From the NCBI GenBank assembly GCA_020746875.1, contig JAGTJL010000002.1, positions 558,001-622,000 of the forward strand: DNA of 64,000 bases, read 5' to 3'. The stretch's first letter is position 1, and every line of letters starts with the position of its first letter. The translations under genes were made by a program, and so were the position numbers. Positions 11,230-28,400 of the stretch are shown here, piece by piece. Source of the DNA: Rhexocercosporidium sp. MPI-PUGE-AT-0058. Its lineage: Eukaryota > Ascomycota > Leotiomycetes > Helotiales. The notes under the pieces are model-generated. The model did not search any database, was not told the origin of the DNA, and worked only from the letters and a program-made list of their open reading frames with translations.

Positions 11230-12782
11230 TATTGAATGGTTGCGAAGGAGAGAATGTAGGTTATTGTCGCACAAGAGCAGGAGCAAGAGTTTGGTGGTTG
11301 CAAAACGAGGCCGTCGGGATAACTTGGAGTGCCCAGCCGCCTTTCCCTTTGCACTCTAGCCCACTCGGGATCTCACGGCCCACGGCTCTGAAATTTTCCA
11401 ACACAGCCGACGCCAGTTGGATGGAAACAACAGTTATCGAGACTCAAAATCCATGGATATTGGACCTAGCATAACCTGGATTACACTTATGAGGAACCAA
11501 TGATCTTGGATCTGAGCTTATTACGACACCAAAGCCAGACTTTGCATAAATTTGCAGAACTCATGATGAAGAGTCACCACCTCACGGGCCATCTGTCCTC
11601 CTTCTTTCCGGACATGTATCTGAAGCCAACCCAAAGTCCCTAGGAAATATTCAGAGGATCCAAAGCCCTAGATGGTGTTCTCTCTCCCTCTTGAATGCTT
11701 CGATCCCGTATTAAGTCCTTCTGCAAGTTGCATTTGCGAGTCTCGCTTTCTCACTTCCTCTTCCCGTCAGTTCCTCCGGCAAAGGATAGAGAAAGGTTGT
11801 CTGTCTATATCTCAATCCGAGTTACGATTTGATTTCTAAACGAGCCTCGATTTCCGAATGTATTTTCACATACCGCATCTACTTTCCTTCCTGTAGCTTA
11901 TAGCTCAAGACTTCTAGTACTTAGAGTTCAATCGATATACCAAGATCTGACCAAATTTACCGCAGCCGGGGAAGCGATTCGGGGCAGACTTCTCAGGATT
12001 CTCTGGTCTCAAGTTGGGTAGGGAATTACTCGTTCGGGAATCTGTTACTTGCCACTCGCGTTGAAGTGATTTCTTCGATACACTCAGATGCGAGCCGTGA
12101 GGAGCAGCTGGTGCTCAAAATGTCCCCATACAAGGAATTCACCCAGGTGTTGCGGCTCCCAAGAATTTACCGCTGCGTGGATATCACTTAGACATATTGT
12201 TCTTTCAATTTCGGGGCGCCTTTGATTTTAAGACCACGGATTTGGGAATTACGGCGTCTTTCGGTGACTTGGCCATAGTCAGGACCAGCTCCTCGACACT
12301 AGTACTCGTATGCCAGCCAATCGTCTCCATGCCATATTGCTCCGTATGGCTTGCTTTTACTCGGTTCTGACTGTCTGATTGTGGTGGTTTAAGCGACTTT
12401 GTTGATGCTCAAAGGGACTTTAACGAAACAGGGGCTGAATAAGAATTGCCTAATCGGGCTTTGAATCAAATGCAGTAGCAAGGTCAACATAGCACGGAAG
12501 CTCTGCTTCTAGTTCTTTCTTTCTCTATTGAACACTCCGTAAATATTATCAGAGCGGGTCCAGGCTTTTGCAATCGAACCTAGAGCGGACAAATCAAACA
12601 TTCCCTTCCTATGGAATAAATGATGAAGACTCCGCACGCTCCCTAGTGCAAAATCAACTTGCCAAATGGTTCTTTCAATTGTTTGCTGATTTCAATTTCT
12701 GTCTGTATTTTCGCGACACCGGCCCCGGGTTGTGGATCCAACCTCATCCACGTGGTGAATTTTCTGGGTTCTCAATATGAAC
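11230..12782. other. Long divergent intergenic region
   Basis: This 5' region is shared between IDH1 (minus) and the pheromone precursor (plus). No convincing ORF is present. The part next to 11230 should hold the IDH1 promoter. Confidence 0.5.
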
Positions 12783-13050
12783 CTCAATAGGATCGGACTC
12801 ACTCATGTGCCCCCCCCGGAGAACCGCCACAACTGGAATCCTTTGATCGGAGTATGGAGACAGTTGCTTCAATTCCAATTGCCTTAGTATCAATTAGTTT
12901 CCTGTAAGCCCTCCGATCTCCCTTTGTCGCGTCATATTTTGATGTCCCTTTTCGGTTCTCAATAGGTGTGACCGGGCCCAATAGTAAGCCTCGCTTCGCT
13001 ACTGTTCTTGTTGACGATGGATATTCCTATTGAGCCTTTTTTCTCAATAG
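12783..13050. promoter_or_regulatory. Cluster of four CTATTGAG sites upstream of the pheromone gene
   Basis: The octamer CTATTGAG occurs exactly four times: minus orientation at 12783-12790, 12958-12965 and 13043-13050, plus orientation at 13027-13034. The last two form an inverted repeat with an 8-base pyrimidine spacer. A fifth near-match (CTCAATAT) is at 12771-12778. They lie about 190-460 bases before the ATG of the pheromone gene. By chance one would expect about two copies in the whole 64 kb. The octamer is, from memory, the binding motif reported for the mating-type alpha-domain factor MAT1-1-1 of Penicillium chrysogenum, which controls alpha-pheromone genes. Confidence 0.7.
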
Positions 13051-13242
13051 GAAGGATAAATATGACCTTGAATTCCTACACTGTTCTGCTTCTTCCTCCT
13101 TCCTTACCCAAACACGAACACACATTCAATCTCCTCTTACACATACACATACACAAGTACAGCTTGTATACTACTCTACAAGGATACTCTCCTCCCTTAC
13201 TCAACACCACCGCCACTCAAATACCACCCCCAACCTTTCAAC

Positions 13243-13782
13243 ATGAAGTTGACAAGCGCAATCTGTGCCTTGATCTTTGCTGCTACCGTCAGCTCCAGCG
13301 CCATCCCGTGGGCTGCTGCTGAGGCAAGATGTGGCCACCCAGGTCAACCATGCGGCAAATTCAAGAGAGTCGCTCTCCCAGAGCCGGAGGCTCGATGTGG
13401 ACATCCAGGGCAGCCATGCGGTAAGCGCGACGCCATCCCAGAGCCTGCTCCTGAAGCAAGATGCGGACATCCCGGCCAGCCTTGCGGCAAACGTGACGCC
13501 ATTCCCGAACCTGCTCCAGAACCAGAGGCACGATGCGGACATCCAGGACAACCTTGTGGCAAACGTGACGCCATCCCAGAGCCCGCAGCCAATCCAGAAG
13601 CAAGATGCGGCCACCCAGGTCAGCCATGTGGCAAGCGTGATGCTATGCCTGAACCAGAGCCAGAGCCAGAGGCACGATGTGGCCACCCAGGGCAACCTTG
13701 TGGCAAGCGTGACGCTATGCCCGAGCCAGAGCCAGAGGCAAGATGCGGCCACCCAGGTCAGCCATGCGGAAAGAAGTTGTAA
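13243..13782 (+). CDS. ppg1: Alpha-type (peptide) mating pheromone precursor
   Basis: One 179-residue ORF begins with a signal peptide (MKLTSAICALIFAATVSSSA) and then carries seven copies of RCGHPGQPCG. Copies 2-6 end in KR, the Kex2 cleavage site; copy 1 is followed by KFKR and copy 7 by KKL at the end of the protein. Between the Kex2 sites and the next peptide every spacer is a run of X-Ala or X-Pro dipeptides (for example DA-IP-EP-AP-EA), the substrate of the Ste13-type dipeptidyl aminopeptidase. This is the architecture of yeast MF-alpha and filamentous ascomycete ppg1 precursors. The peptide would be secreted and sensed by a Ste2/PRE2-type receptor on the opposite mating partner. Unusually, the residue before the first Cys is Arg in all copies, where Trp is typical of known ascomycete peptides. 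The promoter carries four putative alpha-domain factor sites. Confidence 0.92.
   Translation: MKLTSAICALIFAATVSSSAIPWAAAEARCGHPGQPCGKFKRVALPEPEARCGHPGQPCGKRDAIPEPAPEARCGHPGQPCGKRDAIPEPAPEPEARCGHPGQPCGKRDAIPEPAANPEARCGHPGQPCGKRDAMPEPEPEPEARCGHPGQPCGKRDAMPEPEPEARCGHPGQPCGKKL
13321..13779 (+). repeat. Seven tandem pheromone-peptide units
   Basis: Seven coding units of about 51-72 bases each encode RCGHPGQPCG plus a spacer of variable length (9 to 14 residues including KR or its variants). The core is invariant at the protein level, but synonymous positions vary (GGACATCC, GGCCACCC, GGACATCCC), so the copies are kept by selection or gene conversion at the protein level rather than being very recent duplicates. 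Confidence 0.9.
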
Positions 13783-25467: not shown

Positions 25468-28400
25468 ATGGATGGTCTTAGTGGAGCCGCAAGTATCATT
25501 GCCGTGATTGACATCTCTGCAAAGATCTTCGAATTGTGTCAGACATATGTTTCGGCCGTAAAGGAAGCCAGGAAGGATATTCAGCGCCTCCGAAATGGGG
25601 TAACATCTCTCCAAGATGTCCTGACTGATGTGAATGACCTAGCTGAAGACCCGAGCTCATCTAGAAGGTCAATTTTCAGCCATCTCAATCAGCATGACGG
25701 CCCTTTGCAGCAGTGCGAGAGAGACTTGAGAAGACTATTGGCACAGCTGGAACCTGGCGATGGAGAGACCAGGATGAGGCTTTTCGGTTTACGAGCGTTG
25801 AAGTGGCCCTTCTCAAGCAAGGATATTGACAAACGCCTTCAAGTCATCAATGAGCATAAAGCAACATTCACTCTGGCGTTGACATCTGACAATTTGTAAG
25901 CTTTGTATCATGGTGATCCTGTGATTGAAGTTAATAATTATTAGTGTTCTTACTCGCTCTATCAAAGATGATATATCAAGTTTGGGAGATGGTCTAGCGA
26001 ACTTACAAATCGAACAGAAGGCACAGGCGATGGTTGAAAACCAACAGAAAATCCGTCGTTGGCTGTCGTCGCCAGATCCGTCTTCCAACCACAACGCTGC
26101 TTGCAAAGCACGTCAAGCAACTACAGGGGAATGGTTTCTGAAGAGCGATGAGTTTGAGAGATGGAAAATGGCTTCAAGATCTTTTCTCTGGCTTTACGGT
26201 ATCCGTAAGTAATCGATCAAACTACGCTATGAATCGCTAATCAAGATTTTTTCTTTTTAGCTGGCTGTGGGAAAAGTGTCCTTTGGTAATGACTTGACAC
26301 AAATAATTACTTGGAACTTTACTAATGATATTCGCAGCTCTACAGCTATTGAAGCAGTCAAGTCTCAAAATAAGTCTGAGCCTAGCGTGGCAATTGCCTA
26401 CTTTTACTTCGACTTCAACGATACCGAGAAGCAGAAGCACGACAAATTTATGCATTCGCTAATCGAGCAGTTAGCCTGGCAGTCGGCGAAGGCTTTTGCT
26501 TGTCTAGAATCGCTCTTTGCTCGCTGTCAGGATGGGATGCAGCAGCCTTCCCAAGATGCCCTTGAGGTTACATTGCAGAAAATGTTGATTGAATTTGGGG
26601 AGACATTCCTTATTTTTGATGCTTTGGACGAATGCAAAGAAAGAGAAGGACTCCTACATCTGCTCGGAAACTTTAAATCCTGGGAGGCAGTAAATCTGCA
26701 TATTCTTGTCACAAGCCGGAAAGAGCGAGATATCGAAGAATCTCTCGAATCAGTAGCCACCAACAAAATCTGCCTTCAGAGTGCTCTCGTTGATGTTGAT
26801 ATCAGTACCTACATTTCCGAAGGGCTTCAGAACGACTCGAGACTGAAGCGGTGGCCTACTAATGTACGAGGAGAGATTGAAAGCACTCTAATGAAAGGAG
26901 CACAAGGAATGTACGTCGAAATTCCTGCTATTGGATATACTCTGAAATATCTAACATGATTTTCCAGGTTTCGTTGGGTTGTATGTCAACTAGACGTATT
27001 ACGGAAATGTTTGAATATAGGCACTCTTCGGAGAGCGCTAAATTCTCTACCGAAAACCCTGGATGATACATATGCTCGTATACTACTCAGCATTGATGAG
27101 GACTACAGTCAAGATGCATTCCGAATCCTCCAATGGCTGGTATACTCGGCTCGTCCACTTCGTATGGAAGAGATGGTGGAAGTTCTCGCTATCGATACCA
27201 AACAGTCACAATTCAATCCCGAAAACCGACTCCCTGATCCAAGAGATTTGTTAACCATATGCTCCAGCTTGGTAACAACTATAGCAACGACGACTGTAGG
27301 TCGTAATGGAGTTTCTCAGGAGATAATAGAGCTCAGGCTAGCTCATTTCTCTGTCAAAGAATACTTGATCTCTGATCGCATTCGTACTGGAGAAGCTTTC
27401 CGGTATGATATACAATCAGGAGGAGAGGAAGAAATTGCACAATCTTGTCTCCAGTACCTTCTTCATTTTGAAAGGGTTGTACTCAGGTCAGGGAACTTAG
27501 CCACATTTCCGCTAGCACCATACGCAGCGCAATATTGGTGTCGTCATTTCCGAGCGACAAAAGATTCCGATCAAGCGAGCAAACGCGTTATGCAACTCTT
27601 ACAAGGAAAGGCTTTTCAGAACTGGATTCGGCTCTATGACCCAGACTCGCCATTGGGTAGAATACAAAGGACTAGAAATATCGCCACAATTGCTCCTCCA
27701 TTATATTATGCATCAAAAGAAGGTTTATTTAGGCCAGTTTCGATTTTAATTGAGAAAGGGGCTAATATGAATACTCGCGGCGGCGTCTATGGACATGCAC
27801 TTACAGCAGCTTCAGCTTCAGGTCACGAGGCAGTCGTAGCACTTCTAATCGAGAAAGGAGCTAATGTAAATGCTCGCGACGACGGCAATTACGGGACTGC
27901 ACTTACAGCAGCTTCAGCTTCAGGTCACGAGGCAATTGTAGCACTTCTAATCGAGAAAGGGGCCGATATAAATACTCATAACGGCCGCTACTACGGGATT
28001 GCACTTCAAGCAGCTTCAGTTGAAGGTCACGAGGCAATCGTAGCACTTCTAATCGAGAAAGGAGCTGATGTAAATGCTCGCGGCGGCAGCGATTACGGGA
28101 CTGCACTTACAGCAGCTTCAGATAAAGGTCACGAAGCAATCGTAGCACTTCTAATCGAGAAAGGAGCTGATGTAAATGCTCGCGGCGGCAGCAATTACGA
28201 GAATGCACTTCAAGCAGCTTCAGCTTCAGGTCACGAGGCAATCGTAGCACTTCTAATCGAAAAGGGGGCTAATGTGAATGCTCACGGCGGCGACCATTAC
28301 GGGACTGCACTTACAGCAGCTTCAGCTTCAGCTTCAAGTCACGAGGCAATCGTAGCACTTCTAATCGAGAAAGGAGCTGATGTAAATGCTCGCGGCGGCG

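What the first reader, a model, noticed from the sequence alone, without database searches (positions are those of the whole stretch)
12783..13050. Four MAT alpha-domain-type CTATTGAG sites in the pheromone promoter
Seen: the octamer CTATTGAG occurs four times within 268 bases directly upstream of the alpha-pheromone precursor, two of them as an inverted repeat with an 8-base spacer (13027-13050). About two copies would be expected by chance in 64 kb on both strands. Known (from memory): this octamer was reported as the DNA motif of the Penicillium chrysogenum MAT1-1-1 alpha-domain factor. Inference: the pheromone gene here is a direct alpha-domain target, and the paired arrangement may bind a dimer.
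Basis: partly seen in the sequence, partly recalled or inferred. Interest (0 to 1): 0.75.

Follow-up and report, generated by a model that had tools for sequence, protein, structure and literature searches.

The report
Mating-type switch sites before pheromone gene
The promoter of this fungus's alpha-pheromone gene carries a dense group of a short DNA word that a mating-type protein binds in another mould, and a second such group stands before the matching pheromone receptor gene, so the two genes are probably switched on together in one sex.

Summary
In detail: four CTATTGAG octamers lie at 12783-13050, upstream of an alpha-pheromone precursor. This is far beyond chance (5.4e-5 such groups expected in the 62.7-Mb genome). 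New here: the STE3-type receptor gene, the other classical alpha-specific gene, has five octamers in 189 bp upstream; the STE2-type receptor has none. Of 135 genomic (A/T)CCTATTGAG words, all listed, the only neighbours closer than 8.6 kb lie in these two promoters. The promoters share a 21-bp element, CCCYTTTCGGTTCTCAATAGG, with no other genomic match at two or fewer mismatches; its left half resembles an Mcm1 box. The genome is a Leotiomycete's, with a MAT1-2-1-type gene and no detected alpha-domain gene, so the sites would be read in the opposite mating type. Best explanation: a homotypic MAT1-1-1 response array on the alpha-specific genes, probably helped by Mcm1. Motif and targets are known from Penicillium, so the kind is known; I found this lineage, the two-gene pattern and the 21-bp element described in none of the papers I opened. 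The proposed dimer site is not supported: close pairs in the receptor promoter are direct repeats. Conservation in other species could not be tested.

The parts
12783..12790 (-). CTATTGAG site 1 (CCTATTGAGG context)
12958..12965 (-). CTATTGAG site 2, inside the shared 21-bp element
13027..13034 (+). CTATTGAG site 3, left arm of the inverted pair
13043..13050 (-). CTATTGAG site 4, right arm of the inverted pair, 8-base spacer
12946..12966 (+). 21-bp element CCCTTTTCGGTTCTCAATAGG, matching the STE3-type receptor promoter at 20 of 21 bases; left half fits the Mcm1 consensus CCNNNWWRGG on the reverse strand
12771..12778 (-). one-mismatch site ATATTGAG (GGTTCTCAATA context, as in the 21-bp element)
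12525..12532 (+). one-mismatch site CTATTGAA
12977..12984 (-). one-mismatch site CTATTGGG
13055..13062 (+). A/T-rich TATA-like stretch (GATAAATA) just downstream of the last site; inferred core promoter
   Evidence: sequence; inference
13243..13782 (+). alpha-pheromone precursor gene (ppg1 type), 179 aa, RCGHPGQPCGK repeats

Best explanation
The sites form a homotypic array for the alpha-domain mating-type factor MAT1-1-1 in a probably heterothallic Leotiomycete. In MAT1-1 cells several MAT1-1-1 molecules, probably with the MADS protein Mcm1 at the 21-bp element, bind upstream of the alpha-pheromone gene and of the STE3-type receptor gene and switch both on, so one mating type makes alpha-pheromone and senses a-pheromone. 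In MAT1-2 cells, such as the sequenced strain, the array is idle or repressed. Shown here: the array, a second array on the STE3-type gene, no other cluster among the words screened, the shared element, and a MAT1-2-1-type gene in this genome. Inferred: binding by MAT1-1-1, the Mcm1 partnership, activation and mating-type-dependent expression.
For: 4 octamers starting at -460 to -200 of ppg1 and 5 at -587 to -406 of the STE3-type gene, 0 in 1 kb before the STE2-type gene. Poisson expectations 5.4e-5 and 1.9e-8 genome-wide. Of 135 listed (A/T)CCTATTGAG words, the six neighbour distances under 8.6 kb are all in these two promoters. 8 of 9 sites are preceded by C against 256 of 1465 genome-wide, P 6.6e-6. 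The 21-bp element has exact matches at these two places only. In P. chrysogenum the motif is that of MAT1-1-1, and pre1 and ppg1 are named among its targets; the verified motif alone did not activate the tom1 promoter, which fits a need for more than one site (PMC10512297 passages). By the table of PMC6562746 pre1 is the a-factor, STE3-type, receptor; I did not check this for Penicillium. F. graminearum Mat1-1-1 interacts with FgMcm1 in yeast two-hybrid (PMC3691137 passages), and its GzPRE1 is expressed MAT1-1-specifically (PMC4559316 passages). The STE2-type promoter instead has 4 ATTGTT (0.49 expected, P 0.0016), a F. graminearum MAT1-2-1 motif, against 1 in ppg1 and 0 in STE3.
Against: No binding or expression data for this species, and no orthologous promoters could be fetched, so conservation is untested. 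kex2, a P. chrysogenum target by PMC10512297, has no octamer in the 10 kb fetched around it. PMC10569646 reports no mating-type-exclusive pheromone expression in three other Leotiomycetes, with MAT genes barely expressed, and cites altered alpha-factor expression in all four MAT mutants of S. sclerotiorum. In F. graminearum, pheromone and receptor genes rose 7- to 14-fold in the mat1-1-1 mutant in vegetative hyphae, and PPG1 appears activated by MAT1-2-1 with MAT1-2-1 sites in its promoter (PMC11708053 passages). In V. dahliae ATTGA was assigned to Ppg1 and Pre2 and AACAAT to Ppg2 and Pre1, the opposite receptor assignment if Pre1 is STE3-type. P. chrysogenum MAT1-2-1 also binds a probe with this motif. 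The other F. graminearum MAT1-2-1 motif, ATTAAT, is in none of the three promoters.
Confidence: 0.8

Rival explanations
1. The array is read by the HMG protein MAT1-2-1, the mating-type factor this strain does encode, as a repressor or activator of the alpha-specific genes, alone or as a heterodimer with MAT1-1-1.
For: P. chrysogenum MAT1-2-1 binds the tom1-2 probe with the same motif at higher protein amounts and interacts with MAT1-1-1 (PMC10512297 passages). Both V. dahliae MAT proteins bind ATTGA in yeast one-hybrid (PMC11077750 passages). F. graminearum PPG1 appears activated by MAT1-2-1 (PMC11708053 passages). A MAT1-2-1-type gene is in this genome.
Against: The F. graminearum MAT1-2-1 motifs are ATTGTT and ATTAAT. 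ATTGTT is absent or single in the two alpha-specific promoters but present 4 times in the STE2-type promoter, which has no octamer; ATTAAT is in none. The array marks the genes expected to be on in the other mating type.
Confidence: 0.12
2. The sites are MADS-box (Mcm1) sites rather than alpha-domain sites.
For: CCTCAATAGG fits the consensus CCNNNWWRGG quoted in PMC3691137 at 4 of 9 sites; the 21-bp element fits it in ppg1, and ppg1 has one further match at -794 (3 matches in ppg1, 3 in STE3, 0 in STE2). An Mcm1-like gene is encoded (L032).
Against: The closing G is present at only 4 of 9 octamers, while the octamer with preceding C is kept at 8 of 9. The consensus is loose, about one chance match per kb (my arithmetic). 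Mcm1 alone would not be expected to separate STE3 from STE2 (inference).
Confidence: 0.06
3. Chance or a local duplication produced the repeats and they have no regulatory role.
For: CTATTGAG is not rare (1465 in the genome), and the extra C was noted after looking at the sites.
Against: Poisson expectations of 5.4e-5 and 1.9e-8, in two promoters on different contigs of the same pathway. Flanks differ between the sites of a promoter, so they are not one duplicated unit.
Confidence: 0.02

Closest known systems
Penicillium chrysogenum MAT1-1-1 regulon (Becker et al. 2015, not held; seen through passages of PMC10512297)
   Same: Same octamer CTATTGAG; pre1 and ppg1 are named among the targets; clustering of sites is noted.
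   Different: 254 target genes there, including kex1 and kex2; here clusters were found in two promoters and the kex2 region has no octamer. Different class (Leotiomycete). The 21-bp element is not described in the passages I saw.
Saccharomyces cerevisiae alpha-specific gene control by MATalpha1 with Mcm1
   Different: Here four to five octamers per promoter, mostly without an adjacent Mcm1 box; the core differs from the yeast sequence after TCAAT (recalled).
Verticillium dahliae VdMAT1-1-1/VdMAT1-2-1 pheromone gene control (PMC11077750, passages)
   Same: MAT proteins bind pheromone and receptor promoters; an ATTGA motif is reported upstream of VdPpg1.
   Different: There both MAT proteins bind all four promoters, and ATTGA is placed in Ppg1 and Pre2; here the octamer array separates STE3 from STE2.

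Membership tests
MAT1-1-1 (alpha-domain) target promoter | CTATTGAG motif present upstream of the gene | tested here: met
   4 in ppg1, 5 in STE3-type
MAT1-1-1 (alpha-domain) target promoter | enriched over genome background and selective for alpha-specific genes | tested here: met
   limit: only 135 of 1465 octamers were listed exhaustively for clustering
MAT1-1-1 (alpha-domain) target promoter | an alpha-domain protein in the species | tested here: inconclusive
   no PF04769 match in this genome (no positive control rang) nor in 14 of 60 open frames of 75 aa or more of L026; a MAT1-2-1-type gene is present, so the alpha-domain gene is expected in the other mating type
MAT1-1-1 (alpha-domain) target promoter | binding in vitro or by ChIP, and MAT1-1-dependent expression | not testable with these tools
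   needs experiment
MAT1-1-1 (alpha-domain) target promoter | conservation in orthologous promoters of related species | not testable with these tools
   The genome search says this genome has no relatives there; genome contigs, viral, phage, plasmid and E. coli collections are not fungal by their descriptions, and metagenome scans are capped at 0 here
Yeast-type alpha-specific UAS (Mcm1 box next to alpha1 site) | Mcm1 consensus adjacent to the alpha-domain core | tested here: inconclusive
   the 21-bp element fits CCNNNWWRGG in ppg1 exactly and in STE3 with one mismatch (my reading of the sequence); one such element per promoter, the other octamers lack it at that spacing
Yeast-type alpha-specific UAS (Mcm1 box next to alpha1 site) | Mcm1 gene in the genome | tested here: met
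   L032: PF00319 in two pieces; my reading of the translated frame as the Mcm1 type
Palindromic dimer operator | inverted spacing kept across target promoters | tested here: not met
   STE3 close pairs are direct repeats; only 2 inverted pairs with gap 0-30 in the genome, 0.27 expected

The most novel reading that the evidence does not exclude
In this Leotiomycete the alpha-specific regulon has a dense two-gene core. It is encoded by a homotypic CCTATTGAG array plus one 21-bp composite Mcm1/alpha-domain element per promoter, a filamentous-fungus counterpart of the yeast alpha-specific UAS. The STE2-type gene carries the opposite code (ATTGTT for MAT1-2-1). This would mean that mating-type control of pheromones exists in at least some Leotiomycetes, against the published suggestion drawn from three species.
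Probability: 0.35. Interest if true: 0.65.

Novelty: new member of a known kind. Interest (0 to 1): 0.5.

Why it matters
A 2023 survey of 124 Leotiomycetes argued, from RNA-seq of three species, that their pheromones may not be under mating-type control, and described Lachnellula species in which no intact MAT1-1-1 was found (PMC10569646; section 23 and part 1 of 2 of the Discussion read; passages). Arrays of the alpha-domain motif on the two alpha-specific genes give DNA evidence for such control in one lineage and a marker to test in the rest. Lachnellula is a natural experiment: if MAT1-1-1 reads the array, it should have decayed there. The 21-bp element gives a concrete candidate for an Mcm1 partnership in filamentous fungi.

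Tried and rejected
Rejected: chance; a dedicated inverted-repeat dimer site; a pure Mcm1 site (closing G in 4 of 9); L014/L017 as the mating-type HMG gene (by my reading of the sequence it is an NHP6-like gene). The 3-mismatch copy of the 21-bp element on C1 (L024) lies in a 450-base stretch with one fully open frame, so probably in coding sequence.

Led nowhere: Becker et al. 2015 and an alpha1-specificity paper are not held. Three paper searches for the yeast alpha-specific site gave nothing usable. Six-frame Pfam scans of the MAT locus failed because of stops. The kex2 region carries no octamer. The 50 kb around MAT1-2-1 hold none. SLA2 was not identified: 10 open frames of L025-L027 were scanned, those of L036 and L037 were not. 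The a-factor gene was not searched for.

Limits: clusters of octamers with flanks other than A/T-C were not listed genome-wide. Of 256 CCTATTGAG places only the first 100 were listed, and by eye the closest two are 1.6 kb apart. The flanking C, the 21-bp element and the ATTGTT count were noted after looking at the promoters; of the two F. graminearum MAT1-2-1 motifs only ATTGTT shows a pattern.

Full report
The observation. CTATTGAG occurs at 12783 (-), 12958 (-), 13027 (+) and 13043 (-), and the last two are an inverted repeat with an 8-base spacer. The window has 6 copies where dinucleotide shuffles average 2.74 (3 of 100 shuffles reach 6), so the clustering, not the total, is the signal. 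The whole genome (62.7 Mb, 60 contigs) holds 1465 octamers against 1154 for the octamer read backwards. Under a Poisson model four octamers starting within 261 bp are expected 5.4e-5 times in the genome. A local order-2 model of the promoter gives 0.074 per kb and never more than 3 in 3000 runs. As a guard against picking the word after the fact I asked which octamers occur at least four times within 268 bp anywhere in the window: seven, of which two are this word and its shift, four are one simple repeat, and one is CAGCTTCA at 28113-28336.

The gene. The ORF at 13243-13782 encodes a 179-aa alpha-pheromone precursor with repeats of RCGHPGQPCGK. The organism is therefore most likely a Leotiomycete; the species was not determined. 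The octamers start at -460, -285, -216 and -200 from the ATG, just upstream of a TATA-like stretch (sequence; inference).

The second array. I looked up both pheromone receptors in the same genome. The STE3-type gene (PF02076, E 7.0e-47, contig C23, L020) has five octamers starting at -587, -564, -489, -472 and -406; five or more starting within 182 bp is expected 1.9e-8 times genome-wide. The STE2-type gene (PF02116, E 3.7e-75, L018) has none in 1 kb or in the 10 kb fetched around it (L029). In yeast the alpha-factor gene and STE3 are alpha-specific and STE2 is a-specific (established knowledge), so the array follows the expected sex. Each cluster also contains one-mismatch copies: 3 in 526 bp (P 0.007) and 2 in 189 bp (P 0.009), on an equal-base model.

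Genome-wide screen. Eight of nine octamers are preceded by C, against 256 of 1465 in the genome (P 6.6e-6). I listed every TCCTATTGAG (85 places) and ACCTATTGAG (50 places). Among these 135 the six neighbour distances below 8.6 kb are all inside the ppg1 and STE3 promoters. The screen covers 135 of 1465 octamers. For the broader word CCTATTGAG only the first 100 of 256 places were listed, and by eye the closest two are 1.6 kb apart.

The 21-bp element. Aligning the two promoters gave one outstanding stretch (BLAST E 4.4e-5). It is CCCTTTTCGGTTCTCAATAGG in ppg1 (12946-12966) and CCCCTTTCGGTTCTCAATAGG before STE3. Searched through the genome with up to three mismatches the pattern has three matches: these two with none and one with three on contig C1, in a stretch with a fully open frame. 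The chance that any of the 4 x 5 site pairs shares at least 11 of the 12 upstream bases is about 4e-5. On the reverse strand the ppg1 left half fits the Mcm1 consensus CCNNNWWRGG quoted in PMC3691137; the STE3 copy misses by one base (my reading). That consensus is loose: in 1 kb it matches 3 times in ppg1 (one of them, at -794, away from any octamer), 3 in STE3 and 0 in STE2, and four of these six matches are octamers themselves. F. graminearum Mat1-1-1 interacts with FgMcm1 in yeast two-hybrid (PMC3691137 passages), and yeast MATalpha1 binds with Mcm1 (PMC2999568 passages). An Mcm1-like gene is present here (L032). The comparison with the yeast site sequence rests on recall.

Who reads the sites. 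The genome has a MAT1-2-1-type HMG gene (L026, PF00505 on its first half, with the PGIHNNEICK stretch that I read as the MAT1-2-1 type) about 2 kb from an APN2-like gene (Exo_endo_phos plus a GRF zinc finger just under its cut-off). No PF04769 alpha-domain match was found in the genome (without a positive control), nor in 14 of the 60 open frames of 75 aa or more in that 10-kb stretch. So the strain is probably MAT1-2, and the array would work in its MAT1-1 partners. P. chrysogenum MAT1-1-1 binds CTATTGAG, and its targets include pre1 and ppg1, with site clustering noted; the verified motif alone was not sufficient in the tom1 promoter (PMC10512297 passages). P. chrysogenum MAT1-2-1 also binds a probe with the motif, and F. 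graminearum PPG1 appears to be activated by MAT1-2-1 (PMC11708053 passages), so a MAT1-2-1 role is a live rival. Against it, the F. graminearum MAT1-2-1 motifs are ATTGTT and ATTAAT (PMC4559316 passages). ATTGTT occurs 4 times in the STE2-type promoter (0.49 expected, P 0.0016), once in ppg1 and not in STE3; ATTAAT occurs in none. This reciprocal pattern is suggestive, but it was counted after the fact on three promoters. In V. dahliae the reported assignment of ATTGA and AACAAT to the two receptors is the other way round if Pre1 is STE3-type (PMC11077750 passages).

The dimer idea. The genome has two inverted octamer pairs with a gap of 0-30 (0.27 expected): this one and one on contig C20. 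In the STE3 promoter the close pairs are direct repeats with gaps of 9 and 15. A fixed dimer geometry is therefore not shared and the array reads as a homotypic cluster.

Results against. kex2, a P. chrysogenum target, has no octamer in the 10 kb fetched. The 50 kb around MAT1-2-1 have none. Three other Leotiomycetes showed no mating-type-exclusive pheromone expression, but with MAT genes barely expressed (PMC10569646 section 23); its Discussion (part 1 of 2) cites altered alpha-factor expression in all four MAT mutants of S. sclerotiorum. F. graminearum pheromone and receptor genes rise 7- to 14-fold in a mat1-1-1 mutant in vegetative hyphae.

Relation to the literature. A full-text search for CTATTGAG found 16 papers, of which PMC10512297 concerns this factor; a Neurospora paper with two occurrences (PMC5905970) was not opened. 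In eight further searches (two searches listed 12 of 72 and 12 of 29) I saw no title or opening abstract that describes this array or a 21-bp element in a Leotiomycete. I opened nine papers, mostly as passages: PMC10512297, PMC2999568, PMC10569646, PMC11077750, PMC6562746, PMC3691137, PMC13152902, PMC11708053 and PMC4559316. Becker et al. 2015 is not held, so its motif logo and promoter data were not seen. The kind of system is therefore known, and this is a new, unusually clean member of it with a possible new composite element.

Noticed in passing
L032:1786-1793 (C2, upstream of the Mcm1-like gene): A single CTATTGAG lies 27 bases before the likely ATG of the MCM1-like MADS gene. About 0.02 are expected in any given kb, so it may be chance or feedback on the presumed partner.
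   Followed up: partly
L018 promoter (C56, STE2-type receptor): ATTGTT, a F. graminearum MAT1-2-1 motif, occurs 4 times in 1 kb upstream of the STE2-type gene, against 1 in ppg1 and 0 in STE3.
   Followed up: partly
13243-13782: The pheromone precursor here is shorter (179 aa) than four named relatives (251-300 aa) and, by eye, lacks the internal non-repeat spacer seen in Diplocarpon and Mollisia.
   Followed up: no
C1:2760543 and C19:599280: Two MADS-box matches with identical score and frame length on different contigs, possibly a repeat or a duplicated segment.
   Followed up: no
28113-28336: The octamer CAGCTTCA occurs at least four times in 224 bases, the only other non-simple octamer cluster of this density in the window.
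   Followed up: no
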